NCBI GenBank assembly: GCA_009773375.1
Contig: WRPH01000011.1
Span: 1-64,000 of the forward strand
Direction of reading: 5' to 3'
DNA from: Paracoccaceae bacterium
Lineage (GTDB): Bacteria; Pseudomonadota; Alphaproteobacteria; Rhodobacterales; Rhodobacteraceae
DNA length: 64,000 bases
The translations under genes were made by a program, and so were the position numbers. The notes under the pieces were generated by a model, which saw only the letters and a program-made list of their open reading frames with translations, did no database searches and was not told the DNA's origin. Position 1 is the stretch's first letter. Each line of letters begins with the position of its first letter. Of this stretch, positions 3,053 to 56,196 are shown one piece after another.

Positions 3053-3136
3053 GGGGGTTTCACACCCCCGAGGTTTGATTTCCCCGCGGGGAAATCAAAC
3101 CTTCCCCCGTGGGATATTTGCACAGAGAGGATGACC
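3053..3136 (+). repeat. Dispersed structured repeat, copy A
   Basis: GGGGGTTTCACACCCCC (3053-3069) is followed by a perfect 32-bp palindrome (3071-3102), then by TCCCCCGTGGGATATTT and a CACAGAGAGGATGACC tail. The same outer blocks recur in inverse orientation at 53161-53223 around a different palindrome, and the tail recurs at 26303-26327. It lies between dadA and the convergent gntR gene and may act as a bidirectional terminator. Confidence 0.8.
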
Positions 3137-3158
3137 ATTTTAGTCAAATTTTAGCCGT

Positions 3159-3878
3159 TCAGCTGCCCGGCGCGATGATCTGACGAATTTCCGAGTCTAC
3201 CGTGTCGATGATGGTGTTGATCGCGGCCTCTGCAGCATCCGGGTCGGCGGCAGCAATGGCATCGGCCAGATCGCGGTGGGGCGGAAAGCTGGCAAGACCA
3301 AAGCCCGGCACCGAAAACGGCGATTCAGCCGAGCGTTCCAGCGCTTCGTCCATCCGCGCTAGCACCTGCCCGAACATCGGGTTGCCGGTGGCATCGCAAA
3401 TGGCATTGTGAAACGCCGCGTCGGCGGCGCGATAGGGCTGACCAGCCGCGACAATTTTCAACAAAGTGTCGCATAGCCGACTGATCTCTTGCCGCTGGGC
3501 AGCACTTGCGTTCAGCGCGGCACGGCGGACGGTGCCGGTTTCGATCACCCGGCGCATATCCAGCAGCCGCAAGATCGCCTCGCCTTCCAGCTGGATCATC
3601 GTCGGCAGCGGCCCTTGCGAGGTTTGCACCCGTGCGGTCAGATAAGTGCCATCGCCCCGGCGACGGCGGATGATGCCAAGCCCCTCCCAGCGGTTCAGCG
3701 CCTCGCGGATGGTAGACCGCCCCACCCCCAAAGCCGAGGCCAACGAGACCTCGGGCGGCAGCCGGTCGCCCACCTTCAGCCCTGCACGTTCGATCATTTC
3801 GGCCAGCGCCTCCAGCACCGCCACCCCGCGTGACGGCGTGTCGATCGGTTCAAGGTAGTGGATCGCGGCGCGCGTCAT
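3159..3878 (-). CDS. FadR-subfamily GntR transcriptional regulator
   Basis: 239-aa regulator. The N-terminal winged helix-turn-helix (about residues 20-85) contains GDRLPPEVSLASALGVGRSTIREALNRWEGLGII, the GntR signature. The C-terminal part is an all-helical FCD ligand domain with the metal-type residues of that fold (Asp and His in AADAAFHNAICDATGNP and in ASFPPHRDL). It is the last gene of the minus-strand peptide-transport operon, 28 bp after the PLP-enzyme gene, so it is probably a local, ligand-responsive controller. A palindromic TGTCA-N6-TGACA site in front of the operon is a plausible target. The ligand is unknown; an amino or organic acid derived from the imported compound would fit the FCD family. 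Confidence 0.85.
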   Translation of the reverse strand: MTRAAIHYLEPIDTPSRGVAVLEALAEMIERAGLKVGDRLPPEVSLASALGVGRSTIREALNRWEGLGIIRRRRGDGTYLTARVQTSQGPLPTMIQLEGEAILRLLDMRRVIETGTVRRAALNASAAQRQEISRLCDTLLKIVAAGQPYRAADAAFHNAICDATGNPMFGQVLARMDEALERSAESPFSVPGFGLASFPPHRDLADAIAAADPDAAEAAINTIIDTVDSEIRQIIAPGS

Positions 3879-3906
3879 GCTGGTTCCCGTCTGGCGCGGC
3901 AGCGCC

Positions 3907-5097
3907 CTATCCGCTGGCTGATAGCTGCGGCAGGATTTCTGTCAAGGCTGTTACCAGATGGTCCATCTGGGCGTGGGTATTGTAACCCTGCGCCGAGACG
4001 CGGGCGATGGTGTGATCCTGCCAAGCAAAGCAGGGGATTTCGATGCTGTAATCGTCATAAAGACGGCGTTTCAGCTCGACCGGATCGCAGCGCGGCACCG
4101 GCATCGACACCATCTGCGGCGCACAGAACGCCGGGCTGGAAAGTGCGGCCAGGCCGGTGAAGGCGCGCACGCGGGCGGCAGTGGCCTGCACCAGTTGCCG
4201 ACAGCTTTCGGTGATCTTCCACCAGTCATGATCGGCGCGGAATTTCAGCGCCGCTGGCACCGCCAACCACGCCGAAGGGTCGCGGGTGCCCTGCATCTCC
4301 AACCCGTCGATGAAGGGCGTGTTGCCAAACACACCCTTGACGCCGGGCTGCCTGGCGTCTTCGGTCCAGCCGTGGCTGATCACCAACGGGTTGAGCAGGC
4401 TCTGCAATTCTGCCCGCACATGCAGAAAGGCGCTGCCTTTCGGGGCCATCAGCCATTTGTGACAGTTGCCGGCGTAGAAATCCGCCCCCAGCGCATCAAG
4501 GTTCAGCCGAATATGGCCGGGGGTGTGGGCACCGTCGATCACCGAATAGATCCCGCGCGCCCGCGCCGCAGCGACGGCCCGTTCAATCGGGAAGACCAAG
4601 GCCGTGGCAGAGGTGATATGGCTCAGAAACAGCACGCGGGTTTTATCGCTGAACCCATTCAGGATGGCATCGGTGAACTGGGCCTCCTCGGTCAGCGGCA
4701 ACGGAATCTTCACCGTCTTGATCACAGCCCCCGTCTTGCGGCAGACATAGGCCCAAGTCTTTTCCAGCGCGGCATATTCGTGATCGGTGGTCAAAATCTC
4801 ATCGCCCGGCCGCAGGTCCAGCGATTGCGCGACGATGTTCAGCCCGTAGGTGGCATTGGTCAGCCCGACCAGATCATCCGGCGCGGCCCCCAGTTCGGCC
4901 GCCAAAGCCACCCGCGCCGCGCGCATCCAGCCCGACAGGCCGCGCGCCGGGTCAAGGAAGGCAACCGGCTGGCTTTCCAGCTGCAATTGCCAGCGCTGAT
5001 AATCCTCAAACACCGGGCGCGGACAGGCCCCAAAACTGCCGTGGTTCAGAAAGCAGACATCCGGGCGCAGCAGGAAGAAGGCAGACAGGTTTTCCAT
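3907..5097 (-). CDS. Class V PLP-dependent aminotransferase-fold enzyme (isopenicillin N epimerase-like)
   Basis: 396-aa fold-type I PLP enzyme resembling isopenicillin N epimerase/cysteine desulfurase relatives. The N-terminus FLNHGSFGACPRPVFEDYQ is typical of this subgroup. DGAHTPGHIRL carries the PLP-pyridine Asp, and FYAGNCHKWLMAPKGSAFLHV carries the Schiff-base Lys in the NCHKWL motif. The gene begins 1 bp from the stop of the upstream permease gene, so it is translationally linked to a peptide-type importer. It probably acts on the imported compound, as a C-S or C-N lyase, epimerase or aminotransferase; the chemistry cannot be fixed from sequence. Ergothioneine lyase-type EgtE proteins look similar, but no EgtB/EgtD genes are present here. 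Confidence 0.8.
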   Translation of the reverse strand: MENLSAFFLLRPDVCFLNHGSFGACPRPVFEDYQRWQLQLESQPVAFLDPARGLSGWMRAARVALAAELGAAPDDLVGLTNATYGLNIVAQSLDLRPGDEILTTDHEYAALEKTWAYVCRKTGAVIKTVKIPLPLTEEAQFTDAILNGFSDKTRVLFLSHITSATALVFPIERAVAAARARGIYSVIDGAHTPGHIRLNLDALGADFYAGNCHKWLMAPKGSAFLHVRAELQSLLNPLVISHGWTEDARQPGVKGVFGNTPFIDGLEMQGTRDPSAWLAVPAALKFRADHDWWKITESCRQLVQATAARVRAFTGLAALSSPAFCAPQMVSMPVPRCDPVELKRRLYDDYSIEIPCFAWQDHTIARVSAQGYNTHAQMDHLVTALTEILPQLSASG

Positions 5098-5098
5098 C

Positions 5099-5953
5099 TC
5101 AGCGCCCTTTCAGGGTGGGGTCAAGGGCATCACGCAAGCCATCGCCAAACAGGGTGGTGGCCAGCACGGTGATGGCAAGGGCAGCTGTCGGGAAAACCGC
5201 CAAGTGCCAGTAAAAATACATGAAATTCATCCCCACATTGATCATCTGGCCCCAGCTTGGCACCGGCGGCGGCACCCCGATGCCCAGAAAAGACAGCGAC
5301 GCCTCCAGCATCATCGCCAGCGGGATCGCAAGCACAAAGCCGACGATGATAGGTGACAGCGCATTCGGGATCAGGTGGCGGCGGATGATATAGCCGGGGC
5401 TGGCCCCAAGCGCCGCAGCGGCGCGGACGAACTCTTTTTCGCGGAAAGCCTTCACCTGCGCGCGCACCAGCAGACAAACCTGCACCCAGCCAAACAGCGC
5501 CGCGATCAGCACGATGGTCAGAAAACCGCCATTGGTCAGCGCACCCAGCAGCATCGCCGCCAACAACGGCGGCACCACCGAGAACAGCTCGATCAGCCGC
5601 ATCACGCCCCAATCCGCCCAGCCGCCGTAATAGCCCGCAATCGCCCCCAGCGGGATGCCGATCAGCACCGAAAACGCCGCCGCCGCAAAGCCGATGGTCA
5701 GCGACACCCGCGCGCCATACACAATGCGGGTGAAGAAATCGCGGCCCAGATCATCGACGCCGAACCAGAACGCGCCCGACGGGAAAGCATAGGACTGCGC
5801 CAGAAAATCCTGATCGGCATAGCCGGTCTTGCTGATCAGCGGCGCAAAGATTGCCATCAGCAGGATCACCGCCAGCACGATTCCAGACACCACCGCCGCC
5901 TTGTTATCGGCAAAACGGCGCAAGGCAAAATAGAGCGGGCTGCGCTGCGTCAA
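5099..5953 (-). CDS. Peptide/nickel-type ABC transporter permease (DppC-like)
   Basis: 284-aa inner-membrane permease of the oligopeptide importer family. It has a short cytoplasmic N-terminus and an early TM segment (AAVVSGIVLAVILLMAIFAPLI). The characteristic N-terminal OppC region reads FWFGVDDLGRDFFTRIVYGARVSL. An EAA-type loop (EKEFVRAAAALGASPGYIIRRHLIPN) contacts the ATPase. It overlaps the upstream dppB-like gene by 4 bp (ATGA). It pairs with that permease to form the channel for the locus-encoded binding protein. The substrate is probably a short peptide or peptide-like compound. Confidence 0.92.
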   Translation of the reverse strand: MTQRSPLYFALRRFADNKAAVVSGIVLAVILLMAIFAPLISKTGYADQDFLAQSYAFPSGAFWFGVDDLGRDFFTRIVYGARVSLTIGFAAAAFSVLIGIPLGAIAGYYGGWADWGVMRLIELFSVVPPLLAAMLLGALTNGGFLTIVLIAALFGWVQVCLLVRAQVKAFREKEFVRAAAALGASPGYIIRRHLIPNALSPIIVGFVLAIPLAMMLEASLSFLGIGVPPPVPSWGQMINVGMNFMYFYWHLAVFPTAALAITVLATTLFGDGLRDALDPTLKGR

Positions 5954-6879
5954 GACCGCCCCCCGACCCGGATACGCGGGTTCAGCAGGGCATAGACGAT
6001 ATCGGACAGCAGATAGGCGATGCAGAACATCATGGTCACCATCAAGATCAGCGCCATTTCAAGGCTGTAGTCGCGCAGGGTGATCGAGCTTACGAAATAG
6101 GCGCCAAGCCCCGGCACCCGGAACATCGCCTCGACAAAGATCGACCCGGTGGCGGTGCCGATGAACATCGGCAGAAATACCGTCACCATCGGCAGCGCGG
6201 CGTTGCGCAGCACATGCTGGAAGATGATCCGCCGCTCCGACAAGCCCTTGGCGCGCAGTACGGTGACGAACGGCTTGGTCAGCACATCCAGCATGGCGCT
6301 GCGGGTATAGCGGGCATAGGTCGCCATCGGGATCGCGGCATAGGCGGTGATCGGCAAAATCCAAGCGTGCGGCTTGCCCCAACCGCTTGCCGGCAACCAG
6401 TTCAGCCAGACCGCGAACACCATGATCAGCCCCATCGAGATCACAAAGACCGGGATGGTCAGGCCAAGCGTGGCGAAAGCCGAGGCCAGATAGTCGATCC
6501 AGCTGTTGCGCCGCAGCGCAGCCGCCATGCCCAGCAAAATCCCCAAAGGCGCGCCGATCAATACCCCTGCCCCGCCCAGGATCAGGCTGGGCGGCCAGGC
6601 CCGGCTCAGAAGTTGCAGCGTGGTCTCGCCGGGGGATTGGAACGGAATACCGAAATCGAAATGCAGCACCCCCCACATGTATTTGAAATACTGCACATAA
6701 AGCGGCTGATCCAAGCCAAGCGAGGCGTTCAGCTTTGCCTTCACCGCATCCGAGACCGGCATGTCATTGCCATCGAACGGTCCACCGGGAACCGCGTGCA
6801 TCATCAGAAACACGATCACCGAAACCACGGTGAAAGTCAGCGCAATCGAGGCGATGCGGCCAAGGATATAGCGGATCAT
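5950..6879 (-). CDS. Peptide/nickel-type ABC transporter permease (DppB-like)
   Basis: 309-aa partner permease. The N-terminus MIRYILGRIASIALTFTVVSVIVF is the standard DppB first helix, followed by a periplasmic loop and the LLSRAWPPSLILGGAGVLIGAPLGILLGM membrane region. The EAA loop KPFVTVLRAKGLSERRIIFQHVLRNAALP matches the family, as does the C-terminal VPGLGAYFVSSITLRDY segment. Four-base overlaps on both sides (with the ATPase gene upstream and the dppC-like gene downstream) show tight translational coupling. Confidence 0.92.
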   Translation of the reverse strand: MIRYILGRIASIALTFTVVSVIVFLMMHAVPGGPFDGNDMPVSDAVKAKLNASLGLDQPLYVQYFKYMWGVLHFDFGIPFQSPGETTLQLLSRAWPPSLILGGAGVLIGAPLGILLGMAAALRRNSWIDYLASAFATLGLTIPVFVISMGLIMVFAVWLNWLPASGWGKPHAWILPITAYAAIPMATYARYTRSAMLDVLTKPFVTVLRAKGLSERRIIFQHVLRNAALPMVTVFLPMFIGTATGSIFVEAMFRVPGLGAYFVSSITLRDYSLEMALILMVTMMFCIAYLLSDIVYALLNPRIRVGGRS

Positions 6880-7811
6880 TGCAAAATCGCCTCCAACCGA
6901 TGGTCGGGCGCAATCTGGATCAGTTCGGGCTTGCCAGTGCTGACGCCATAGCCCGAAAGACGCGGCGTCGCGGCCTCGATTTCAGCGCGGCTCAGAAACC
7001 GCCGCGCCCGGCGCTCGCGCGGGTTCAACACTGGAATCGCCTGCAGCAGGCTGCGGGTATAGGGGTGGCGGGCGTCGGTGAAGATGGTTTCAGTCGCCGC
7101 CTCTTCAACGATCCGGCCCTGAAACATCACCGCCACCTTGTCGGTCAACGAACGCACCACCGACAGATCATGGCTGATGAACAGGATCGAAAGCCCCATT
7201 TCCGCCTGCAAATCCAGCAGCAGATTGATGATCTGCGCCTTGACGCTGACATCCAGCGCCGAGGTCGGCTCGTCCGCCACCAGCACGGCAGGCCGCAGGA
7301 TCAGCGCGCGGGCAATGGCCACGCGCTGGCGCTGCCCGCCGGAAAGCTCATGCGGATAGCGGCCGCCATAGCTGCGGTCCAGTCCGGTTTTCACCAGCAT
7401 ATCAAGCGCTTGCTCTGCCTGTTCGGCAGCCGTGCCCAGCCCGTGAATATGCAGCGGCTCGGCCACGATCTGTGCCAGCGTCATCATCGGGTCCAGCGCC
7501 GAATAGCTGTCCTGAAACACCACCTGCATCTGGCGGCGGAACGGTTTCAGCGCGGCATGGCCCAAGGCGGTAATATCGTAGCCGCCCACCAAAATCTGCC
7601 CCGAGCTCGGCTCCACCAGCCGCATCGCCATCATGCCGGTGGTGGTCTTGCCCGAACCGGATTCGCCAACCAGCCCAAGGATCTGATTTTTCGGCAAAAT
7701 CAGCGACACATCCCGCACTGCAAGATGATCGCTGTGGCGCGCAAACACCCCACCGCTTTGGCGCAAGTGATAGGTCTTGCACAGGTTGCGCAACTCCAAG
7801 GCCGGGGTCAT
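6876..7811 (-). CDS. Oligopeptide ABC transporter ATP-binding protein (DppF-like)
   Basis: ATPase of the peptide importer, about 311 aa from the chosen start. The ATG at 7811 (MTPALELRNLCKTYHL) overlaps the preceding ATPase stop by ATGA; a longer open frame is unsupported. It shows Walker A GESGSGKTT, a Q-loop (VVFQDSYSALDPMMT), signature LSGGQRQRVAIARAL, Walker B VLVADEPTSALD and H-loop ILFISHDLSVV. The C-terminal region (ARHPYTRSLLQAIPVLNP) is the oligopeptide-ATPase extension. It lacks the terminal Cys-rich Fe-S motif seen in many relatives. Confidence 0.93.
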   Translation of the reverse strand: MTPALELRNLCKTYHLRQSGGVFARHSDHLAVRDVSLILPKNQILGLVGESGSGKTTTGMMAMRLVEPSSGQILVGGYDITALGHAALKPFRRQMQVVFQDSYSALDPMMTLAQIVAEPLHIHGLGTAAEQAEQALDMLVKTGLDRSYGGRYPHELSGGQRQRVAIARALILRPAVLVADEPTSALDVSVKAQIINLLLDLQAEMGLSILFISHDLSVVRSLTDKVAVMFQGRIVEEAATETIFTDARHPYTRSLLQAIPVLNPRERRARRFLSRAEIEAATPRLSGYGVSTGKPELIQIAPDHRLEAILQ

Positions 7812-8770
7812 GGCAATCTCCAGCAGGCCGCCGCACGGGTCGCGGATTGGGATTTGAACGCAGGCACTTGCGCAGCGCATCGGGCCTCGGCCACAGCGCA
7901 GCGCGGATGAAACGGGCAGCCCGATGGCGGATTGCTCGGGTTGGGCGAGGCCCCCGGAATTTCCACCAACCGCTGCTTGCCGGCACTGCGCCCCGGCATC
8001 GAAGCCATCAGCGCCTGCGTATAAGGATGCGCGGGTGCGTCGAAAATATCCTGCACAGGTGCTGTTTCCATCACCCGCCCGCCATACATCACCACAACCC
8101 GGTCAACGGTTTCAGCCACCACGCCCAGATCATGCGTCACCATGATCAGCCCCATGCCGAATTCAGCTTGCAGGTCTTTGATAAGCTGCAGGATTTGCGC
8201 CTGAATCGTCACATCCAGCGCCGTGGTCGGCTCATCGGCAAACAGGATTTGCGGCCGACACGACAGCGCCATCGCAATCATCGCCCGCTGCAACATCCCG
8301 CCAGACAGCTGATGCGGATAACTGTTCAGAATTGCCTCGGGGGTCTTGATTTCCACCCGCGCCAGCAGATTTGCCGCCTCGCCCCGCGCTTCGGATTTCG
8401 ACACCTTGCGATGCGCGCGGATGGTTTCCACGATCTGATGACCAATGGTGAAAACCGGATCAAACGCCGTCATCGGGTCTTGAAACACCATCGCGGCAAC
8501 GCGGCCGCGGCTGGCCGACAGTTGCGCCCGGCTGGCGGTCAGCATGTTGACTCCAGCCAACTCCATCTTGTCCGCCGCAATCCGCGCAGGTGGCTCGCGC
8601 AACAGCCGCAGCACCGCCATGCAGGTCACAGATTTGCCAGAGCCGGATTCGCCAACAATTCCAACGCTTTCGCCCGCCGCAACCGACAGGCTGACCCCAC
8701 GCACCGCCTGCACCACGCCTTCGTGTTGCGGGAAACTGACGGTCAGGTTTTCAATATCCAACAGCGGCAT
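7808..8770 (-). CDS. Oligopeptide ABC transporter ATP-binding protein (DppD-like)
   Basis: Second ATPase of the importer, 320 aa if started at the ATG at 8770 (MPLLDIENLTVSF, the usual family N-terminus). A GTG at 8785 is an alternative and has the better G-rich leader. Motifs are Walker A GESGSGKS, signature LSGGMLQRAMIAMALS, Walker B ILFADEPTTALD and ITHDLGVV-type H-loop (MVTHDLGVV). The C-terminus contains NPSNPPSGCPFHPRCAVAEARC, the Cys cluster diagnostic of the oligopeptide_HPY extension. It follows the binding-protein gene after a stem-loop that probably lowers ATPase expression relative to it. Confidence 0.93.
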   Translation of the reverse strand: MPLLDIENLTVSFPQHEGVVQAVRGVSLSVAAGESVGIVGESGSGKSVTCMAVLRLLREPPARIAADKMELAGVNMLTASRAQLSASRGRVAAMVFQDPMTAFDPVFTIGHQIVETIRAHRKVSKSEARGEAANLLARVEIKTPEAILNSYPHQLSGGMLQRAMIAMALSCRPQILFADEPTTALDVTIQAQILQLIKDLQAEFGMGLIMVTHDLGVVAETVDRVVVMYGGRVMETAPVQDIFDAPAHPYTQALMASMPGRSAGKQRLVEIPGASPNPSNPPSGCPFHPRCAVAEARCAAQVPAFKSQSATRAAACWRLP

Positions 8771-8790
8771 GCGGCATCCGGGCACGGGCC

Positions 8791-8814
8791 GCCCCCCGGC
8801 ATCAACCGGGGGGC
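8791..8814 (-). other. Intercistronic stem-loop between binding protein and ATPase genes
   Basis: A perfect 9-bp GC-only stem (GCCCCCCGG / CCGGGGGGC) with a 6-base loop lies 8 bases after the binding-protein stop. No U-run follows, so it is more likely an mRNA-protecting or partial-termination hairpin than a full terminator. This is the common arrangement for making more periplasmic binding protein than transporter. Confidence 0.7.
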
Positions 8815-8821
8815 AGCGGGT

Positions 8822-10426
8822 TTACTTCTGAACGTGGGTGTAGAAATACAGCGCCAGTTGCCGCAAGGGCGAGAAGCCCAGCTTGTTCGGCAGCGTCGCA
8901 TCGCCCTTCAGATCTTGCGACACCACCGCATTGGTGATCGGATGCACCAGCGGCACGAACGAGGCGTTGTCGATCAGCACCTGCTCGGCCTGCTGATACA
9001 GGTTCACCCGTTCCTCCCAGACCGGATTGCTGTCGGCCTGCGCCACCAGATCGTCATAGGCCTTGATCTTGTGATCATGTCGCCCGCCGTTGAAGAAGAT
9101 GCCGTAGAAGTTCGACGGGTCGATATAGTCGTATTCATAGGGTGCAAGGAACAGGTTGTTCTTCTTCTCCATCATCCCCGCCATCCAGTCTTTCTGCGGC
9201 AGGATCTTGATATTCATGGTAATTCCCAGAATATCCTTAAACTGCGCTTGCAGATATTGCAGCATAGGCGCGGTGATTGCGCCGTTATAGCCGCCCTGAT
9301 CGCGATACCAGATTTCCACCTCTGGAAAGCCCTCGCCGTTCGGATAGCCGGCATCAGCCATGAATTTCCTGGCCTTTTCCGGGTCGAACACCGCCTGCGA
9401 GGTGATCGCGTCGTTGTAGCCAGGATAGCCCGGCGGCAGCAGCGATTTGCCGGGAATGGCAAGGTCTTTCAGCACCGTTGCCGTCATCTCATCTCGGTTG
9501 ATAGCGGCCTGAAACGCCTTGCGGACGTTGATGTTGTCGAACGGCGCCATATCAAGGCCGAACGAGATGTAAGACACCGCAAACACCGCATTCTTGGCGA
9601 TCTGGCCCGGAAAGCGCTGTTCCACAAACGGAATTTGTCCGGCGTTCAGATACGAGAAATCAGACTCCCCCGCCATGAAGGCCGGAAGCCCCACTTCGGG
9701 CGCGCCCAGCGACGGGTCAATCTCCAGCCGGTCCACCTGCGGCTGCCACGGGCCGGTGTATTTCGGGTTCTTCACCAGAACCATGCTGTTGTTGGATTTC
9801 TCCCACGACTCGACAATGAACGGCCCGGAAGACACCAGCGAGTCCACATTCGCCGCGTATTCGTCACCCAGCTTGTCCCAGACATGCTTGGGCACCGGAT
9901 ACCACAGGCTGACCACGCCCGGCAGATAAGGTTTCGGTGCCGAGGTGGTGACTTCGATCGTCACATCATCCACCGCCTTGATGCCAAGCGTTGCCACATC
10001 GGCCTCGCCCTTGGTCACCGGGTCCCAATTGGCGATGCCGCCCGCGTAGCCCCAATACCATGCGAAATCATAGCCGGTCGTCGCCGCACGCTGCAGCGAA
10101 AAGATGTAGTCACTGGCCTTCAGCGGCTCGCCATCCGACCACAGCAGACCGGCGCGCAGCTTGAACGTCCAGGTCAGACCGTCTTCCGATTGCGTCCAGC
10201 TTTCGGCCGCCATCGGGTGCAGATCGTAGTTGTTGTCAAAGCTGGTCAGCGGCAACTGGATGATTTCAGGGTTGCCGGCGCGGGCATAGACCGTCTTCAT
10301 ATAGTCCATATATGTGCCAGAGGTGGTGTCCCCCGCACTATATACGGTGGTCTGCACCGAAATGGGCGCGGTAGACAGCAGCACCGCCGTCACCAGCGCC
10401 CCCGCTGTTCTCAGGAAATGTCGGAT
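8822..10426 (-). CDS. Peptide-type ABC transporter substrate-binding protein (SBP_bac_5), apparent AUC start
   Basis: Family 5 periplasmic binding protein, 534 aa as called. The body shows family features: AAESWTQSEDGLTWTFKLRAGLLWSDGEPLKASDYIFSLQRA near the N-terminus, then NVRKAFQAAINRDEM, FDPEKARKFMADAGYPNGEGFP and an NPVWEERVNLYQQAEQVLIDNASFVPL end. The start is odd. The first conventional in-frame start, a GTG at 10393, leaves half a signal peptide with no basic n-region. Extending upstream gives (M)RHFLRTAGALVTAVLLSTA, a normal signal peptide. It would begin at an ATC (10426) placed 4 bases after a GGAGGA Shine-Dalgarno (10431-10436), so I place the start there. It is the first gene of the operon. 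Confidence 0.85.
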   Translation of the reverse strand: MRHFLRTAGALVTAVLLSTAPISVQTTVYSAGDTTSGTYMDYMKTVYARAGNPEIIQLPLTSFDNNYDLHPMAAESWTQSEDGLTWTFKLRAGLLWSDGEPLKASDYIFSLQRAATTGYDFAWYWGYAGGIANWDPVTKGEADVATLGIKAVDDVTIEVTTSAPKPYLPGVVSLWYPVPKHVWDKLGDEYAANVDSLVSSGPFIVESWEKSNNSMVLVKNPKYTGPWQPQVDRLEIDPSLGAPEVGLPAFMAGESDFSYLNAGQIPFVEQRFPGQIAKNAVFAVSYISFGLDMAPFDNINVRKAFQAAINRDEMTATVLKDLAIPGKSLLPPGYPGYNDAITSQAVFDPEKARKFMADAGYPNGEGFPEVEIWYRDQGGYNGAITAPMLQYLQAQFKDILGITMNIKILPQKDWMAGMMEKKNNLFLAPYEYDYIDPSNFYGIFFNGGRHDHKIKAYDDLVAQADSNPVWEERVNLYQQAEQVLIDNASFVPLVHPITNAVVSQDLKGDATLPNKLGFSPLRQLALYFYTHVQK

Positions 10427-10536
10427 CTGTTCCTCCGTGTTGACGCCAAAGGCGTTTGCGTTGGGATGCCCAAGGTTTCTCCCCGGCGCATTTCATTTGC
10501 TGCATTTGGCCCGCTGCGTCAGATCACAACCGCCAA

Positions 10537-10552
10537 TGTCATATGTCTGACA
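10537..10552. promoter_or_regulatory. Candidate GntR operator in the divergent promoter region
   Basis: TGTCATATGTCTGACA contains the inverted half-sites TGTCA and TGACA with a 6-bp spacer. It sits between the peptide-import operon (minus) and the M29 aminopeptidase gene (plus). Size and symmetry suit a FadR-type GntR dimer, and such a regulator is encoded at the end of the operon. Assignment to that protein is inference. Confidence 0.5.
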
Positions 10553-10681
10553 ATTTTCAACTCTTCGCGCAACAGCGGCGTTGCCCCCACGACTGATTTT
10601 TTACCGGCTGGCAAATCCGGGTCGGTTGACCCTGCCCGGCAGCGGGCTAAGGTCAGGCAAAATTTGCAAAGGATTGCAACG

Positions 10682-11914: not shown

Positions 11915-11996
11915 CGCGCCAGGGTTTCAAGCAAAGCGCGCTTGATGAATGCACGCATGGATCGCAACCTTGCCGCCTCAAACGGGCTGGCCTAAC

Positions 11997-12018
11997 CCCA
12001 CAAGCATAGCCTTGTGGG
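11997..12018. terminator. Hairpin between convergent genes
   Basis: CCCACAAG / CTTGTGGG forms an 8-bp stem with a 6-base loop. It sits between the convergent aminopeptidase and cytochrome genes. A second short hairpin (CTGCGG / CCGCAG) follows near 12040-12057. No clear U-run is present, so termination efficiency is uncertain. Confidence 0.5.
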
Positions 12019-12062
12019 CTTCCCGATCCTGATCTTGCTGCGGCCGCATCGCCGCAGCTAAG

Positions 12063-26261: not shown

Positions 26262-26327
26262 GAGGGGGGCTAGCCCCCCTCGCCCTGCGGGCTCACCCCC
26301 CAGGATATTTGTGCAGAGAGGATGACC
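26262..26327 (+). repeat. Dispersed structured repeat, copy C, ending in a ribosome-binding site
   Basis: A 20-bp palindrome GAGGGGGGCTAGCCCCCCTC (26262-26281) is followed by hairpin GCCC-TGC-GGGC (26282-26292), then ACCCCCCAGGATATTTG and GCAGAGAGGATGACC. The tail matches copy A almost exactly, and the tail's AGAGAGGA is the Shine-Dalgarno of the ThuA-like gene that starts at 26328. The two hairpins correspond to those of copy D (56134-56196) with compensated base changes. Confidence 0.8.
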
Positions 26328-36122: not shown

Positions 36123-36127
36123 TCCGC

Positions 36128-36155
36128 TTCATCTTGGCCCAAATACTCCCCGCGG
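36128..36155 (-). repeat. Dispersed repeat, 3' module, copy E
   Basis: TTCATCTTGGCCCAAATACT followed by CCCCGCGG is the same module (read on minus: CCGCGGGGAGTATTTGGG then CCAAGATGAA) that occurs twice head to head at 38964-39019 and once at 56134. It follows the DMT-gene stop by 6 bases. No long palindrome is evident next to it, only GC-rich sequence. Confidence 0.7.
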
Positions 36156-36247
36156 CGCGCGCCGGAGCCGGTTGGCGGCACGCCAGAGGCGACTAAAAAA
36201 CCACGCGCCGCAAGGCGCTCAATTTCCGTCCTGCCCGAAAGCCCAAA

Positions 36248-37480: not shown

Positions 37481-37488
37481 CGCGATAA

Positions 37489-38926: not shown

Positions 38927-38963
38927 CAGCGCCCGCCTGCGGCACGACGCCCGAGCCTCCGGC

Positions 38964-39019
38964 GGGAGTATTTTTACCAAGATGAAGCGCACGATCTTCA
39001 TCTTGGTAAAAATACTCCC
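38964..39019. repeat. Head-to-head pair of the dispersed repeat module (copy F)
   Basis: Two inverted copies form a perfect 24-bp stem: GGGAGTATTTTTACC plus AAGATGAAG at 38964-38987, and its complement at 38996-39019, with an 8-base loop. Both ends continue into CCGCGG-like sequence. It follows the pccR stop by 37 bases and is a strong potential transcript end for pccR. The half-unit matches the module at 36128 and 56134. Confidence 0.85.
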
Positions 39020-39182
39020 CGCGGAGCGTCAGTCAGCCCCGCCGCAGATCTGCCTTGCAGGCCGAGACCGCGACAGCCGCGGTTGCGGCCCCCTCGATGG
39101 GGGCCAAGACCGCCCCGCCACAACGCCCCGCCAAACGAAAAAGACGGGCCAAAGCCCGCCTTTCCCGAAACATCAAAGCCGA

Positions 39183-49043: not shown

Positions 49044-49099
49044 GGCTTATGCAGGCGCGATAACTTGCTAGGCTTGCCCATCACAGCGCGAGGGTTGGC

Positions 49100-50152: not shown

Positions 50153-50390
50153 TCGTTCAGCCCGGCCTGTCAAAGGGCGGGGCTTGACCGGATTTCCCGC
50201 CTGCGCCGCTTGAAGCCTGCAGTGTCAACGCGGCAAGCAAGGCCCGATAGGGCCGATGCGCCCGGCAGATCACAAAGGCGAAACGCGGAAATTCCGGGCC
50301 ACCGCAAACTTGGCGAAATTTCCGGTGCTTCGGGGCAACTGCCCCCAGCGAAACGCAGCGCAGTCTGCTGTGATTGTCACCCAAGCTGGT

Positions 50391-51554
50391 TCAATCCACG
50401 CGGCTCAGCAGCCCACCCGATTGTCGCAAGATCCGCCCCTCCAGCTCCAACGAGATCAGCGCAGGCGACAGCATCGCAGGCGGTAGCGCCAGATCGCGGA
50501 TCAGCTGATCTTCGGCCAAGGGGCTGGGGCCAAGCCGTGCCAGAATCTGGCTGTGCACCGCCGCAATATCCGCCAGTGGCCTGCGCGGCGGCACCGGGCC
50601 GGGCAGCGGGTCGGGCACCGCAACAGGCTCGACCATAGGCTGGGCCTGCGCCACAAAGCTGCCCTGCACGCCAATCGCCTCCAGCACATCCTGCGCCGAC
50701 CGCACCAGCGTCGCGCCGTCGCGCAGCAAGATATTACAGCCCGCCGCGCGCGCGTCGAACGGATGCCCCGGCACCGCCAGTACCTCGCGCCCCTGATCCA
50801 GCGCGTTCTTCGCGGTGATCAGGCTGCCGGATCGCGCTGCCGCCTCGACCACCACCACCGCGCGCGCCAGCCCCGACACAATGCGGTTGCGTTGCGGGAA
50901 ATGCCGCGCTTGCGGTTCCAGCCCCATCGGCTGTTCCGAAATCCGGCAGCCTTTCGCCGCAATTTCCGCCGCGAGGTCAGCGTTTTCCAGCGGGTAGATC
51001 ACATCGACCCCGCCCGCCTGCACCGCGACCGTGCCCGACTCCAGCGCGGCACGATGCGCCTCGGCATCAATACCGCGTGCCAGCCCCGAAACCACCACCT
51101 GCCCTGCGGTCGCCAGCCCTTCCACCAGCCGCCGCGTCATCCGCAGCCCGAGCGATGAGGCATTGCGCGCGCCCACCAGCGCCACCATCGGCCGGGACAG
51201 CAGGCCAATATCGCCCTGCGCCCACAGGATCGGCGGCGCATCCGGCAAATCCATCAAAGCCGCCGGATAGCCCTTTTGCCCCCACAGCAACAGCCTCGCG
51301 CCTGCAATCCGGCCCAGCGCGAGTTCATGTTTCACCACCTCCAGCGGACAGACCGCGTAATTTTCTACCCCCGAGGCGCGCGCAATTTCTGGCAAGGCCG
51401 CCAGCGCTGCCGCAACCCCGCCCTGTTCGGCCAGCAGCCGATGAAACGTCACCGGCCCGACCCTGCGGGAGCGAATGAGACGAAGCCACAGCAACGGGTC
51501 CGCGTCCAGGGGTGCGGGACTTGGGGTGTGGGGTGTGTTCAGACCCGGTGCCAT
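50391..51554 (-). CDS. dprA: DNA processing protein DprA/Smf
   Basis: 387-aa protein that loads RecA on incoming single-stranded DNA during natural transformation. It has an N-terminal SAM-like part (LLWLRLIRSRRVGPVTFHRLLAEQG). The Rossmann core (about 100-300) holds PPILWAQGDIGLLSRPMVALVGARNASSLGLRMTRRLVEGLATAGQVVVSGLARGIDAEAHRAAL, then GCRISEQPMGLEPQARHFPQRNRIVSGLARAVVVVEAAARSGSLITAKNALDQGREVLAVPGHPFD. The C-terminal winged helix is intact (ILARLGPSPLAEDQLIRDLALPPAMLSPALISLELEGRILRQ). It is monocistronic. The 238 bases after its end hold no recognised feature. Confidence 0.94.
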   Translation of the reverse strand: MAPGLNTPHTPSPAPLDADPLLWLRLIRSRRVGPVTFHRLLAEQGGVAAALAALPEIARASGVENYAVCPLEVVKHELALGRIAGARLLLWGQKGYPAALMDLPDAPPILWAQGDIGLLSRPMVALVGARNASSLGLRMTRRLVEGLATAGQVVVSGLARGIDAEAHRAALESGTVAVQAGGVDVIYPLENADLAAEIAAKGCRISEQPMGLEPQARHFPQRNRIVSGLARAVVVVEAAARSGSLITAKNALDQGREVLAVPGHPFDARAAGCNILLRDGATLVRSAQDVLEAIGVQGSFVAQAQPMVEPVAVPDPLPGPVPPRRPLADIAAVHSQILARLGPSPLAEDQLIRDLALPPAMLSPALISLELEGRILRQSGGLLSRVD

Positions 51555-51777
51555 GCATGCCTCGCCTCATTCACGATTCGCAGTCTGCACCGCGCGAGGT
51601 TAACAACAGATGAATCGAACCGGAGGCGCCAAGAAAATCGCTTGCCTCTGGACTGAAATCGCCCCAAAACTGGACTTATCGAAACCGCGTCTGGGCCGAT
51701 TGCAGCACGCCACTTTCTTTGATCAATTGTTGCGCAATACCAGTCGCAAGCCCACGCGACGCCGCAAAGGAAAAGCC

Positions 51778-53052
51778 ATGAAAAACGCCGAAGTTGCCCG
51801 CCGCCGCGACGAATCCATCTCGCGCGGGGTCGGGGTGCAGACCCAGATTTACGTTGACCGCGCCCTGAACTCCGAAGTCTGGGATATCGAGGGCAACCGC
51901 TACATCGACTTTGCGGCAGGCATCGCCGTGGTCAACACCGGCCATTGCCACCCCAAGGTGATGGATGCGGTCACCAAACAGCTGTCGAAATTCACCCACA
52001 CCTGCCATCAGGTGCTGCCCTATGAAAACTATGTCCGGCTGGCCGAACGGCTGAACGCCGCCGTGCCGGGCGATTTCCCGAAGAAAACCGTCTTCGTCAC
52101 CACCGGCGCGGAAGCGGTTGAAAACGCAGTAAAAGTCGCGCGCATCGCCACCGGTCGCAACGCCATCATCGCCTTTGGCGGTGCCTTCCACGGCCGCACT
52201 CTGCTTGGCATGTCGCTGACCGGCAAGGTTGATCCCTACAAGAAGGGCTTCGGCGCGATGATGCCAGATGTCTACCACGTCCCCTTCCCGCAAGAGATCC
52301 ACAACATCACCACCGAAGACGCGATGGCCGGCATCACCAAGCTGTTCAAGGCCGATCTCGACCCGACCCGCGTCGCCGCGATCATCTTTGAACCCGTGCA
52401 GGGCGAAGGTGGCTTCTACCCCGCACCGAAAGACCTGATCCGCGCCATCCGCAAGCTCTGCGATGACAACGGCATCGTGATGATCGCCGACGAGGTGCAG
52501 ACCGGCTTCGCCCGCACCGGCACCATGTTCGCGATGGAGCAATCCGGTGTCGCCGCCGACATCACCACCATGGCCAAGGGCCTCGCAGGCGGCCTGCCGC
52601 TGGCAGCCCTCACCGGCAAAGCCTCGCTGATGGACGCCGCTCACCCCGGCGGCCTCGGCGGCACCTACGGCGGCAACCCGATCGGCATCGCCGCCGCCAA
52701 TGCTGTGCTGGATGTGATCGAGGAAGAACAGCTCTGCGCCCGCGCCAACGAACTCGGCGGCCGCCTGAAACAGCGGCTAGAGGCGATCCGCTCCACCACC
52801 CCGGAAATCACCGACATCCGCGGCCCCGGCTTCATGGTCGCGGTCGAATTCGCCAACCCGACCAACCACGAGCCCGACGCAGGCTTCACCACCCGCGTCC
52901 GCGTCGAGGCACAAAAGCGCGGCCTGATCCTGCTGACCTGCGGCGTCTACGGCAACGTCGTGCGGTTCTTGGCACCCATCACCATCCCCGACGCCCATTT
53001 CGCCGAAGCGATGGATATCCTTGAGGCGGCAGTGGCGGCAGCGCGCCAGTAA
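51778..53052 (+). CDS. gabT: 4-aminobutyrate aminotransferase
   Basis: 424-aa class III PLP aminotransferase that converts GABA and 2-oxoglutarate to succinate semialdehyde and glutamate. The start at 51778 has AAAGGA upstream; the longer open frame is unsupported. [61 protein letters not shown] is a typical GabT N-terminus. [39 protein letters not shown] and the PLP-Lys segment [47 protein letters not shown] (Lys in [10 protein letters not shown]) identify the enzyme. No gabD is adjacent. A strong terminator follows. Confidence 0.94.
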
Positions 53053-53075
53053 CCGCCCTACCCCTGTTGACAAGG

Positions 53076-53103
53076 AGGCCGGAGCCCACAAGCTCCGGCC
53101 TTT
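53076..53103 (+). terminator. Rho-independent terminator after gabT
   Basis: AGGCCGGAGC / GCTCCGGCCT is a perfect 10-bp stem with a 6-base loop, ending in TTTGCC, 24 bases beyond the gabT stop. Confidence 0.8.
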
Positions 53104-53160
53104 GCCATCCTACTCTGCCCAACCCCGAACAATTTTCTTAAAATTCGTTCATCTGTCCTT

Positions 53161-53223
53161 AAATATCCCACGGGGGAGGCCCGGATTGCCCGGGCAATTC
53201 GGGCTTGGGGGTGTGAAACCCCC
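53161..53223 (-). repeat. Dispersed structured repeat, copy B
   Basis: Read on minus: GGGGGTTTCACACCCCC, a 26-bp palindrome (53179-53204, one G-T wobble), then TCCCCCGTGGGATATTT. The two outer 17-base blocks are identical to copy A (3053-3119), while the enclosed palindrome has a different sequence but keeps its pairing. It lies between gabT and the unassigned region. Confidence 0.8.
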
Positions 53224-54095
53224 ATCCACGCCCACGTCAGGCGCGTTGCTTGCCCGTTTACCCGTGGCGCGTCACCCTTGATATCCCCTCAAACAGATAG
53301 CCTTCCCTGTCTCCGCAGCCAGACTGACCCCGAACAGCAATAAGCTAGCTTGCTCAAAACTTGCCCTGCGCAGCCGATAGCCACGGCTGGAACCAGATGT
53401 TTTCTTCCAGCTATCAACTCGGCGGCATGGCCTTGGCAGCGCTTGGTCACGCAAATGAAACCCCATGGGGCCCACGCCGCGCAGCCCCGCCGCTCCACCC
53501 TGCCGCGCTGGGAGGATATCTGTCTTGCCGTCGCTAGTCTTGCCGAACAACAAGGCAAACCATCTTACCGTTTGGCCGATGCAAGCCTGCCCAAACCCTT
53601 CGCCCGCCGCTCGGATTTCATCTGTCGCCCGCTCAGCCACCCCACCGCCACCCGCCACCAATATTGCCGCCGCCTTTCGTCTCGGCGCAGCCTTTGCCCG
53701 ACCACAGCTCCAATCCGTCCCGCAAGGATTTGGCCTCATCGAAAACGCCCTTTGGACCATCACCGCCGACATCGACGCCACTCTGGCGCAGCACGCGACC
53801 GCCCGCGCCGATTTCTTGCTAGAATATGCCCCAAACGCCCGCCAAAACCCACATCTGACCAAGCACAACAGCGTCTTGTATTTCCACACCGCCCTGATCT
53901 CGACTGGCTGTTTTTCCGCCACTGGCGCTTGCCAAAGCGATGCACAAATCTGTCGCGGGCCGATTTTACCCGGACCTAACCCTGTTCGCAAAATGATCAC
54001 CCGCCTCAGCCTTCCCCCGAAAGCGCCGGTTCCGACCATGCCCCCGCGACTATTAACAAATCCTGAACACCACCCCATAACCCGCTGATTTTATA
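53224..54095 (+). other. About 870 bp without a recognised gene; fragmentary coding signal on plus
   Basis: No protein family was recognised. Two plus-strand frames have coding-like, GC3-rich stretches in succession: LPRWEDICLAVASLAEQQGKPSYRLADASLPKPFARRSDF at about 53508-53630, then FGLIENALWTITADIDATLAQHATARADFLLEYAPNARQ at about 53730-53845. The latter lies in a 207-codon frame ending at 54088. This looks like a frameshifted remnant or a poorly conserved gene. The minus-strand open frame 53272-54078 lacks coding character. The first 45 bases downstream of the repeat and the last 90 hold nothing notable. Confidence 0.35.
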
Positions 54096-54124
54096 TAAAC
54101 CGCTGCATCGTCCACACGCGGACA
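54096..54124 (+). repeat. Direct repeat flanking bioMNY, upstream copy
   Basis: TAAACC, 10 unrelated bases, then CCACACGCGGACA. The same 29-bp pattern with the same spacing recurs at 56292-56320 in the same orientation, 2,196 bp further on, just past bioY. A TTTATATAAA palindrome precedes this copy. It lies 65 bases before the bioM start. Confidence 0.7.
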
Positions 54125-54189
54125 AAACCCACCCCCTTCCCCCCTCGCCCCGCCCGCGCTATCACCTCCCCCAACCGGGGACCGCATCC

Positions 54190-54915
54190 ATGACCACCAC
54201 CGCAGGCATCACCCTCCAGAACGCCACCGTCACCCTCGGCGGCAAACCGATCCTGTCCAACCTCACCCTGCACCTCACCCAGCCCCGCATCGGCATCATC
54301 GGCCGCAACGGCTCGGGCAAGACCACCCTCTTGCGCCTGATGGCGGGCCTGATCCCGCCCACCACCGGCAGCGTCCAGATCGACGGCCTCAACCCCACCG
54401 ACCGCAAGGCGATCCTGCCCCGCCTCGGCATCCTGTTCCAGAACCCCGACCACCAGATCCTGTTCCCCACCGTGGCCGAGGAACTCGCCTTCGGCCTGCG
54501 CCAGCAAGGCCAGAGCCAGGCGGCGGCTGATCAGGCCGTCACCCACCTCCTCGCAACGGAATCCCGCGCACACTGGGCCAAAGCCGCCACCCACACGCTC
54601 AGCCAAGGCCAGCGCCACTACCTTTGCCTGCTGGCCATCCTGCTGATGCAGCCGCAAACCATCTTGCTGGATGAACCTTTCGCGGGCCTCGATCTGCCCA
54701 CCCAAATCCGCCTTGCCCGCCGCCTTGCCGCCCTGCCGCAACGCCTGATCACCATCACCCACGACCCCGCCAGCCTTGCCAGCTGCGACCGGGTGATTTG
54801 GCTGGAGTCCGGCCAGATCCGCGCCGACGGCCCGCCCGCCGCCGTCCTCCCCGCCTTTACCGCCGCCATGACCGAGCTAGGAGAGCGCGATGCTGACACT
54901 CACCTCGCCGATTGA
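54190..54915 (+). CDS. bioM: Biotin ECF transporter ATPase BioM
   Basis: 241-aa ATPase of the energy-coupling module that drives vitamin uptake with BioN and the biotin-binding BioY. Walker A is GRNGSGKTTLLRL (38-50), Q-loop GILFQNPDHQILFPTVAEELAFGL (the FQNPDxQ form typical of ECF ATPases), signature LSQGQRHYLCLLAIL, Walker B ILLDEPFAGLDLPT and H-loop LITITHDPASLA. Length is as usual for BioM. Start ATG 54190 follows a GGGGACCGCATCC leader. It overlaps bioN by 26 bp. Confidence 0.92.
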   Translation: MTTTAGITLQNATVTLGGKPILSNLTLHLTQPRIGIIGRNGSGKTTLLRLMAGLIPPTTGSVQIDGLNPTDRKAILPRLGILFQNPDHQILFPTVAEELAFGLRQQGQSQAAADQAVTHLLATESRAHWAKAATHTLSQGQRHYLCLLAILLMQPQTILLDEPFAGLDLPTQIRLARRLAALPQRLITITHDPASLASCDRVIWLESGQIRADGPPAAVLPAFTAAMTELGERDADTHLAD

Positions 54916-55483
54916 AACCTACGCCCACCGCCTGCCGGCCAGCGTGAAACTCGCGGCCCTCGCGCTGTTCACCGCCACCCTGTTCGCGCTGAAAAGCCCC
55001 AGCGCCCTTGCCCTCGCCGCGCTGATTCCCGCCAGCCTGATCGCCAGCAGTGGCCCCAGCTTCAGCCGCGAGAGTGCGCGAATGCTGCGGCCCTTGCTGC
55101 CCATCGTCATCGTCATCGCCCTCTGGCATCTGATCTTGCGCGATCCGGGCGGCGTGGCGATCCTGCTGCGGCTGATCACCGCCGTCGCCGCCGCCAATTT
55201 CGTCACCATGACCACCCGGCTTGCCGACATGATCAACGTCTTCGAGCGTCTCGCCCGCCCGCTCCGCCCGATCCTGCCGCCGAAAACTCTGGCGCTTGCC
55301 ATCGCGCTGACCATCCGCTTCGTGCCCACCCTGCTGACCCGCGCCGACCAGATCCGGCAAAGCTGGCGGGCGCGCTCGCCCCGCCGCCCCGGCTGGCGCA
55401 CACTGCTGCCCACCACCCTCGCAGCCCTCGACGACGCTGACCATGTCGCCGAGGCCCTGCGCGCCCGTGGCGGCCTGGGGTAA
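54890..55483 (+). CDS. bioN: Biotin ECF transporter transmembrane subunit BioN
   Basis: 197-aa T-component. Helices are visible at SVKLAALALFTATLFAL, ALALAALIPASLIA, LLPIVIVIALWHLIL, VAILLRLITAVAAANFVTMT and PKTLALAIALTIRFVPTLL. The coupling-helix motif typical of T-components (Ala-Arg-Gly) is AEALRARGGLG near the C-terminus; a second such motif is degenerate (RQSWRARSPRR). MLTLTSPIETYAHRLPASVK is a typical BioN start. It is co-translated with bioM by the overlap, with bioY 63 bp downstream. Confidence 0.9.
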   Translation: MLTLTSPIETYAHRLPASVKLAALALFTATLFALKSPSALALAALIPASLIASSGPSFSRESARMLRPLLPIVIVIALWHLILRDPGGVAILLRLITAVAAANFVTMTTRLADMINVFERLARPLRPILPPKTLALAIALTIRFVPTLLTRADQIRQSWRARSPRRPGWRTLLPTTLAALDDADHVAEALRARGGLG

Positions 55484-55546
55484 GCAAAGCCATTGCCAGC
55501 CACCCCCGGCACAGGCTAACTGCCCGCACGCAAACAGGAGTCGCCG

Positions 55547-56089
55547 ATGGAAAAGAACCTCACCCATATCGCCCTTTTCGCCGCGTTGATCGCGGTGCTG
55601 GGTCTTGTGCCGAAGATCGATCTGGCTTCCGGCGTGCCGATCACCGCGCAGTCGCTGGGTATCATGCTATGTGGCACCGTGCTGGGGGCCAAACGCGGCG
55701 CGCTGGCCGTGCTGCTGTTCCTTGGCCTGACGCTGGCCGGTCTGCCGCTGCTGTCGGGCGGGCGTGGCGGTTTGGGCGTGCTGGCCTCGCCGACGGTCGG
55801 CTATATCATCGGCTTCCCGATCGCCGCATTCGTCACCGGCCTGATCGTGCAGGCATGGAAAGCGCCAATCCTGCCCGCCGCCGTGGTCGCGGCCTTCCTC
55901 GGCGGCTTCGTGCTGCTGAACGCCATTGGCATCCTTGGCATGGCTTTCATGCTGGAAAAAACCCTGCCCGAGGCCGCCCTGCTCGCCGCCCCCTACCTGA
56001 TCGGCGACACCATCAAGGCCGTTCTGGCAGGCCTCGTCACCCAGGCCATCGCACAAATGCGCCCCGACGCGCTGCTGTCGCGCAGCTAA
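55547..56089 (+). CDS. bioY: Biotin-binding S component BioY
   Basis: 180-aa membrane protein that binds biotin. The N-terminus LTHIALFAALIAVLGLVPKIDLASGVPITAQSLGIMLCGTVLGAKRGALAVLLFLGLTLAGLPLLSGGRGGLGVLASPTVGYIIGFPIAAFVTGLI contains the conserved BioY features: PxTxQ-like VPITAQ, GAKRGALA, GLPLLSGGRGGLGVLASPTVGYIIG. Six helices are predicted. It has a good GGAG ribosome site (CAGGAGTCGCCG before ATG). It completes bioMNY, on plus, convergent with the thiolase gene. Confidence 0.95.
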   Translation: MEKNLTHIALFAALIAVLGLVPKIDLASGVPITAQSLGIMLCGTVLGAKRGALAVLLFLGLTLAGLPLLSGGRGGLGVLASPTVGYIIGFPIAAFVTGLIVQAWKAPILPAAVVAAFLGGFVLLNAIGILGMAFMLEKTLPEAALLAAPYLIGDTIKAVLAGLVTQAIAQMRPDALLSRS

Positions 56090-56133
56090 GGCAAGCCCAC
56101 CCAGCCGCCCCACACCGGGGCGGCCCCTGCCAT

Positions 56134-56196
56134 TTCATCTTGGCCCAAATATCCTCAGGGGGTGAGGCCGCAGGCCGAGGGGGCAGAAAGCCCCCT
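56134..56196 (-). repeat. Dispersed structured repeat, copy D
   Basis: Read on minus: hairpin GGGGGC-TTTCT-GCCCCC, hairpin GGCC-TGC-GGCC, then TCACCCCCTGAGGATATTTG, GGCC and CCAAGATGAA. The design and most of the linker are those of copy C (26262), but the second stem has exchanged a C-G for a G-C pair. The tail joins the CCAAGATGAA class of copies E and F. It follows bioY by 44 bases. Confidence 0.8.

What the first reader, a model, noticed from the sequence alone, without database searches (positions are those of the whole stretch)
3053..56196. Dispersed structured repeat with compensated base changes
At least six copies (A 3053, C 26262, E 36128, F 38964, B 53161, D 56134) share a ...GG(A/G)(G)TATTT module. 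Copies A and B have identical 17-base outer blocks (GGGGGTTTCACACCCCC and TCCCCCGTGGGATATTT) around palindromes that differ in sequence but stay palindromic. Copies C and D keep both hairpins, while one stem exchanges C-G for G-C (GCCC-TGC-GGGC against GGCC-TGC-GGCC). Pairing is conserved more than sequence, which points to selection on structure rather than mere copying. I do not know a named family that fits.
Basis: partly seen in the sequence, partly recalled or inferred. Interest (0 to 1): 0.72.

Follow-up and report, generated by a model that had tools for sequence, protein, structure and literature searches.

The report
Tagged gene-end hairpin repeats in Rhodobacteraceae
Many small hairpins, each followed by one of a few short DNA tags that differ from species to species, sit right behind genes in a family of bacteria, which suggests that something not yet known reads the tags.

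Summary
The six places are copies of a dispersed element: a G+C-rich hairpin head, GGATATTT or GGAGTATTT, a three-base spacer, then a tag of 10-14 bases. The host genome has 201 hits of a general pattern (reversed control 0). Relatives in the family carry it unevenly: 90 of 149 genomes match one form, 16 of them with 10 or more hits. Heads keep pairing while sequence changes (55 of 58 distinct insert hairpins have a stem, mean z 5.2). The tag is nearly invariant in the host (63 of 66) and differs between most genomes compared, though one, G009, is mixed. At several conserved sites species differ in tag and head. Copies lie at gene 3' ends (0 of 199 divergent against 12 of 89 convergent gaps), with no strand preference (27:27; 12:9), against plain terminators. 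No Y1 transposase was found in the host and no Rfam match. Best reading: a REP-like gene-end repeat whose tag is read by an unknown, lineage-specific factor. The factor is inferred, not shown.

The parts
3053..3136 (+). Copy A: G5/C5 hairpin (3053-3069), insert hairpin, second C run, GGATATTT (3112-3119), tag class T3 GCACAGAGAGGATGACC
   Evidence: orthologous site occupied on the same strand in G001, G004, G005, G006
26264..26327 (+). Copy C: G6-CTAG-C6, insert hairpin GCCC-TGC-GGGC, GGATATTT (26303-26310), tag T3 directly before the ThuA-like gene start
   Evidence: element at the same place in 7 of 13 genus loci, own included
36127..36170 (-). Copy E: head, GGAGTATTT (36149-36141), tag T1 GGGCCAAGATGAAG; antisense between two co-directional genes
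   Evidence: same strand and site in L096, L098 and L100 with a T3-like tag
38955..38987 (+). Copy F1: GCCTCCGGCGGGAGTATTT and tag T1 CCAAGATGAAG
   Evidence: tail-to-tail pairs behind the orthologous gene in L096, L098, L100, L117, L126, 5 of 80 loci
38996..39030 (-). Copy F2: partner of F1, tail to tail (GGAGTATTT 39018-39010, tag T1)
53147..53223 (-). Copy B: GGGGGTTTCACACCCCC (53223-53207), insert hairpin, GGATATTT (53168-53161), tag T2 GGACAGATGAAC
56133..56195 (-). Copy D: G5/C5 hairpin, insert hairpin GGCC-TGC-GGCC, GGATATTT (56154-56147), tag T1 CCAAGATGAAA
   Evidence: an element beside bioY on the same strand in G002 with tag CCAGTATGAAA (L193)

Best explanation
This is a REP-like, gene-end repeat family of Rhodobacteraceae. 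Each copy is a short palindromic head (one or two hairpins), a fixed GGATATTT/GGAGTATTT junction, a 3-base spacer and a sequence tag. Shown: the copies sit behind stop codons in either orientation, keep palindromes while head sequences change, share near-identical tags within the host genome, and differ in tag between species at several shared sites. Inferred: the hairpin makes a stable 3' end or intercistronic barrier for the mRNA in front of it (protection from exonucleases, partial termination when it lies in sense). Inferred: the tag is bound as double-stranded DNA by a sequence-specific factor whose specificity differs by lineage, and either that factor or copying between sites keeps the tags of one genome alike.
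For: Copy number and control: 149 and 201 hits of two patterns in the own genome, reversed controls 0. Fixed spacing: AGAKGA lies 6 bases after TATTT in 112 of 113 fetched copies (only offsets 5-8 were allowed). Few half-decayed copies: 63 of 66 T3 places have the exact 11-base core although 3 mismatches were allowed (copies with more than 3 would be missed). Dialects. Site kept, sequence different. Gene-end placement: 0 of 199 divergent, 12 of 89 convergent, 21 of 490 co-directional gaps in 80 named loci; 3 of 105 own copies with both neighbours called lie in divergent gaps. No strand preference: 27:27, 12:9. Five antisense cases checked by Pfam: 10 of 10 neighbour proteins hit a family on the called strand, including an aminotransferase class III / carbamoyltransferase pair. 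Palindromes.
Against: No factor that reads the tag was found, and only Y1 transposases were looked for. No RNA data were available. Dialects are not clean everywhere: in G009, of 39 listed places of 50, 28 read CAGAGAGG, 8 CACAGAGG and 3 CAAAGAGG. Some sites are empty in relatives (beside bioY only the own genome and G002 among 14 loci), which also fits a merely mobile repeat. Two to four tag classes in the genomes inspected would need several factors or a loose one. 59 of 149 genomes of the order have no match to the pattern used, and most of the 90 others have few. Gene calls come from a simple codon-usage caller made here, checked by Pfam in five cases.
Confidence: 0.5

Rival explanations
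1. Ordinary intrinsic terminators: the hairpin plus TATTT ends the transcript of the gene in front, and the downstream bases help release.
For: In 97 of 111 copies the last predicted stem ends within 3 bases of TATTT (65% for shuffled and 56% for random 50-mers). Enrichment at convergent gene pairs. Head-to-head pairs look like bidirectional terminators.
Against: Single copies between co-directional genes point either way, 27:27 and 12:9. Antisense copies often lie close to the stop codon of the gene they oppose (20 of 33 within 40 bases) and have no more A on the far side of the head than sense copies (2.95 against 3.36 of 12 bases, H2 heads). In copy C the next gene starts 12 or 18 bases after TATTT, which leaves little room for a promoter behind it. 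A terminator needs no near-invariant tag. Copies B and D lie beside a separate plain hairpin behind the opposite gene (seen by eye).
Confidence: 0.2
2. A purely mobile, non-autonomous repeat (REP or MITE type) with no cell function: copies look alike because they are young, and gene-end placement is what purifying selection leaves.
For: Families of heads and tags, paired head-to-head and tail-to-tail copies, presence or absence beside bioY, mixed tags in G009, avoidance of promoter gaps.
Against: Sites and strand are shared between species (A, C, E, F) while tags differ. Half-decayed T3 copies are rare. No Y1/RAYT transposase in the own genome (the genome is 92.7% complete). Copies lie close to stop codons on both strands.
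Confidence: 0.22
3. DNA uptake sequences, as in Neisseria and Pasteurellaceae, kept by biased uptake of DNA and used in terminators.
For: Short species-specific sequences in inverted pairs at gene ends are known for uptake sequences (passages of PMC1852404).
Against: About 200 copies of the general pattern rather than 1000 or more. The one tag counted alone hardly occurs without the junction (12 of 14 CCAAGATGAA in 1.54 Mb follow TATTT). Several tag classes per genome.
Confidence: 0.06

Closest known systems
REP / BIME elements (RAYT-associated repetitive extragenic palindromes)
   Same: Short palindromes in many copies, in both orientations, single and in head-to-head or tail-to-tail pairs, several classes per genome (partly recalled), often contiguous with stop codons (PMC3733652, one passage read)
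   Different: No GTAG/CGTC foot; instead GGATATTT-N3-tag. No Y1 transposase match in the own genome. Heads vary while the tag is fixed.
Rho-independent terminators
   Same: G+C hairpin ending next to a T-rich stretch, enriched between convergent genes
   Different: No strand preference between co-directional genes; weak T tract; near-invariant bases downstream
DNA uptake (signal) sequences at terminators
   Same: Many copies of a short lineage-specific sequence at gene ends, with dialects
   Different: Fewer copies, fixed distance to a separate hairpin, few copies without it
Rhodobacterales structured RNA candidates (SAM/SAH riboswitch, HRC-8-4, uORFC-8-2; passages read)
   Same: Structured motifs found only in this order
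   Different: Each is described with one gene or gene cluster; none is described there as a dispersed gene-end repeat

Membership tests
REP (RAYT-associated) | GTAG/GGAG or CGTC tetranucleotide at the foot of the palindrome (definition partly recalled) | tested here: not met
   The conserved foot is GGATATTT/GGAGTATTT plus tag in the own copies aligned, which were chosen by that junction
REP (RAYT-associated) | A Y1 (PF01797) transposase in the genome | tested here: not met
   0 matches in the own genome; weak matches in 3 of 14 same-genus genomes, one over the cut-off
REP (RAYT-associated) | Dispersed extragenic palindromes in many copies, single and paired | tested here: met
Intrinsic terminator | Stem directly followed by a T-rich tract | tested here: met
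   97 of 111 within 3 bases against 65% and 56% in controls; the tract is only TATTT
Intrinsic terminator | Lies in sense behind the gene it ends | tested here: not met
   27 sense, 27 antisense among single copies between co-directional genes; 12 and 9 in named loci
DNA uptake sequence | About 1000 or more copies per genome | tested here: not met
   201 hits of the general pattern in the own genome; tag classes outside that pattern were not counted
DNA uptake sequence | Raises DNA uptake | not testable with these tools
   needs transformation assays
Rfam families | Match to a covariance model | tested here: not met
   0 at gathering score in the window; 0 at E<=1 in five loci with copies

The most novel reading that the evidence does not exclude
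Rhodobacteraceae mark gene ends with hairpins that carry a lineage-specific address tag. An undiscovered DNA-binding or DNA-processing system reads the tag, and tag and reader evolve together, so that genomes switch dialect while the sites stay in place.
Probability: 0.35. Interest if true: 0.82.

Novelty: new variant of a known kind. Interest (0 to 1): 0.62.

Why it matters
If the tag has a reader, a large and well-studied bacterial family has a genome-wide gene-end system that none of the titles and abstract starts listed by my literature searches mentions (capped lists, open-access papers only). It would be a clean case of a repeat changing sequence at fixed sites in step with its genome. 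It also matters in practice: such hairpins lie between many co-directional genes and would affect expression and terminator prediction in Rhodobacter, Ruegeria and their relatives.

Tried and rejected
Rejected: conserved RNA of a named Rfam family. Rejected: RAYT-driven REP in the own genome. Rejected: tail-to-tail pairing as the reason for tag conservation, because most copies are single and in G007 some head-to-head pairs carry different tags on the same head. Rejected by eye only, without a test: a promoter reading. Left open: cruciform or pseudoknot. In heads with TTT-type and CTTCGCG loops the loop matches the bases before GGATATTT (TTTCACA with GTG, TTTTGCA with GCA, TTTTCCA with GGA, TTTTACA with GTA, CTTCGCG with GCG), with one mismatch (TTTTACA with GCA); the large CTGTCTG/GA class shows no such match in that register. 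Over 25 loop/spacer types the complementary run is 4.08 against 3.71 shuffled, 0 of 5000 as high, a small difference.

Led nowhere: blastn of copy A in plasmids and in phages, no match; of F in plasmids, two records with weak matches. A search for printed 9- to 16-mers of the element listed 40 of 603 papers, none about these bacteria by title. The 268-aa reading frame 53272-54078 beside copy B has no Pfam hit and no match in 14 genus genomes, so the gene context of B is uncertain; searches count B as antisense.

Limits: the 113 own copies come from places listed plus the window, not from all copies. Classes T1-T3 are defined by their tags, so exact counts within fetched classes are partly by construction; one search is less biased. 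In one search only one tag position was free, rows for G009 are 39 of 50 and none was listed for G001. In one search the pattern held the last tag positions to V-R-A, so GAA there is partly forced; one search uses the rows listed (24 of 24, 26 of 74, 26 of 50). In one search the stems were picked for good pairing and the swapped control was not refitted, so 93.5% against 32% overstates the contrast; the shuffles were refitted. H2 heads were found by a pattern that already asks for G and C runs. R-scape and a covariance model were not run.
Full report
What is there. The six reported places are confirmed, and F is two copies tail to tail. Reading past the shared TATTT shows that every copy continues with a three-base spacer and a tag: T1 CCAAGATGAA (D, E, F1, F2), T2 GACAGATGAA (B), T3 CAGAGAGGATGACC (A, C). 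The own genome is G000, 3.71 Mb, window = contig C33. The best named relative of its ScfR-like protein is in Cypionkella psychrotolerans, 95% identity. It has 149 hits of GGATATTTGNNNNNAGATGA at up to 2 mismatches and 201 of GGRTATTTN6AGAKGA at up to 1, with 0 for the patterns read backwards.

Anatomy. Two kinds of head precede the junction. H1 is GCCTCCGGCGGG or GCTCCGCGGG. H2 is a G run, a loop, a C run, an optional insert hairpin, a second C run and a 0-3 base spacer. In 93 H2 heads from all loci then held, the three runs have equal length in 64. The insert hairpins differ from copy to copy yet pair: 55 of 58 distinct inserts have a stem, with 468 Watson-Crick pairs, 3 G-T, 9 A-C and 6 other; against refitted mononucleotide shuffles the 55 have mean z 5.2, 49 of them above 2. 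Outer stem arms pair 93.5% with their own partner against 32% when swapped (37 distinct arm pairs), a contrast inflated because the stems were picked for pairing. In 13 copies of the TCG...CTCA type 94.6% of cells pair and 0 of 500 shuffles reach that or the covariation score, while the count of doubly changed pairs (2 of 3) is reached by 204 of 500. The lack of G-T excess means the data do not single out an RNA; DNA hairpins or repeated copying with quasi-palindrome correction remain possible. In TTT-type and CTTCGCG loops the loop also covaries with the bases before GGATATTT, so a pseudoknot-like contact is possible but weakly supported.

The tag. In the own genome, 63 of 66 places found with GGATATTTGNGCAGAGAGGATGACC (up to 3 mismatches) have the exact core CAGAGAGGATG; most variation lies in the spacer and the last three bases. 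In G005 the same class reads CACAGAGGATG in 47 of 52 places, CAGAGAGG in 3 and CATAGAGG in 2. In G004 it reads CAGAGAGG in 54 of 59, CACAGAGG in 4 and CAAAGAGG in 1. G009 is mixed: of 39 listed places of 50, 28 CAGAGAGG, 8 CACAGAGG and 3 CAAAGAGG. The own genome has no CACAGAGG form among the 66. Other genomes use other tags behind the same heads. G007 has AAAGAGCAA, CCA(A/G)TNTGAA, AACAGATGAA and CAGAGAGGATGA; G015 has CCAAGAAGTG and GAAANTCGAA. G060 has mostly CCAGAAAGAA (15 of 24) and CCAAAGTGAA; G102 has CCAGAATGAA (10 of 26 listed of 74); G134 has CAGAGTGAAA (9 of 26 listed of 50). In G007 some head-to-head pairs carry two different tags, so the tag is not kept for pairing with the partner.

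Range. With GGRTATTTN6AGAKGA, 16 sampled genomes of other alphaproteobacterial families have 0-8 hits each, 55 in all against 22 for the reversed pattern; the 14 other genomes of the genus have 5-316 and the 10 of other genera of the family 2-136. Low counts inside the family may mean other tags. In the order, 90 of 149 genomes and 53 of 73 genera match one H2-type pattern, all reversed controls 0; 16 genomes have 10 or more hits and 59 have none. Named loci with copies recognised by eye include Cypionkella, Pseudorhodobacter, Thioclava, Tabrizicola, Frigidibacter, Ruegeria and Rhodobacter capsulatus.

Sites stay, sequences differ. At locus A (between the FAD oxidoreductase and the GntR regulator) G001, G004, G005 and G006 have an element at the same place and on the same strand: tag T1 in G004, CACAGAGGATGAC in G005, CACAGTGGATGAC in G001, CCAAGGTGAGG in G006, with different heads and a shared downstream ATTTTA flank; G003, the most distant ortholog (63% identity), has none in the 190 bases shown. 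Upstream of the ThuA-like gene (C), 7 of 13 loci have it within 150 bases, own included; five read CACAGAGGAT and one CAGCGAGGATG where the own genome reads CAGAGAGGATG; one of the six without it (L183) holds only 44 bases there. E is antisense in the own genome and in L096, L098 and L100, with T1 in the own genome and T3-like tags in the others; L102, L103, L117 and L126 show none in the 200 bases read. Behind the ScfR-like gene a tail-to-tail pair stands in L096, L098, L100, L117 and L126, 5 of 80 loci, with differing tags. Beside bioY (D) an element was found in the own genome and G002 only, tag CCAGTATGAAA in G002; none in the other 12 of 14 loci, one of them a contig end.

Gene context. 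Of 113 fetched own copies, 36 lie in convergent gaps, 66 between co-directional genes (33 per strand), 3 in divergent gaps, 3 inside called genes, and 5 lack a called neighbour on one side. Single copies between co-directional genes are 27 sense and 27 antisense (B is counted as antisense although its context is uncertain). In 1.48 Mb of 80 named loci an element was found in 0 of 199 divergent, 12 of 89 convergent and 21 of 490 co-directional gaps of 60 bases or more, strand 12:9; permuted motifs gave 0, 1 and 4. Of 33 antisense copies 20 have the stop codon of the opposed gene within 40 bases of TATTT. For five antisense cases all ten neighbour proteins match Pfam families on the called strand.

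Mechanism. Placement behind stop codons, strand indifference and presence between genes that may form operons fit an intercistronic or 3' barrier of the REP type better than a terminator, though sense copies have terminator-like geometry. The near-invariant tag needs another reason. The simplest is a sequence-specific reader of double-stranded DNA whose specificity differs between lineages. The alternative is efficient copying between sites. The data do not separate the two: T1 and T3 can be aligned column by column (C..AGA.GA), so stepwise change is conceivable, but head and tag differ together at locus A. I found no Y1 transposase in the own genome.

Literature. In the lists returned by eight full-text searches (most lists capped) no title or abstract start describes this repeat. 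Passages of five papers were read: PMC12306157, PMC3733652, PMC1852404, PMC2864571 and PMC8632094; none of those passages mentions it. Most subscription papers and all bioRxiv preprints are outside the library, so an earlier description cannot be excluded.

Noticed in passing
window 3136-3155 and behind 15 further copies in G000 loci: An AT-rich module ATTTTAG, often twice (TTTTAGTCAAATTTTAG, spacing TTAG-N7-TTAG), follows the tag in 16 of 111 copies (counted by eye) and is shared at locus A across species. The spacing recalls CtrA sites (recalled, untested).
   Followed up: partly
window 36141-36235; L032 minus strand, similar head ends in L041 and L042: Copy E lies in a longer repeat (GCGCCTTGCGGCGCG...GTCGCCTCTGGC...GGCTCCG...) that recurs in L032 and includes a separate plain hairpin with a T run on the same strand.
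   Followed up: no
window 53272-54078 (-): A 268-aa reading frame without Pfam hit and without match in 14 genus genomes; possibly not a gene.
   Followed up: partly
insert hairpins in L010, L064, L065: Some insert hairpins contain CACATTGG...CCAATGTG, the same letters as the tag CCAATGTGAA seen in G007 and L100; heads and tags may exchange pieces.
   Followed up: no
window 26311-26327 and some other T3 copies: The T3 tag (GAGAGGATGACC) directly precedes the next gene's start and could serve as its ribosome binding site; similar letters occur in E. coli 16S rRNA (recalled, not checked).
   Followed up: no
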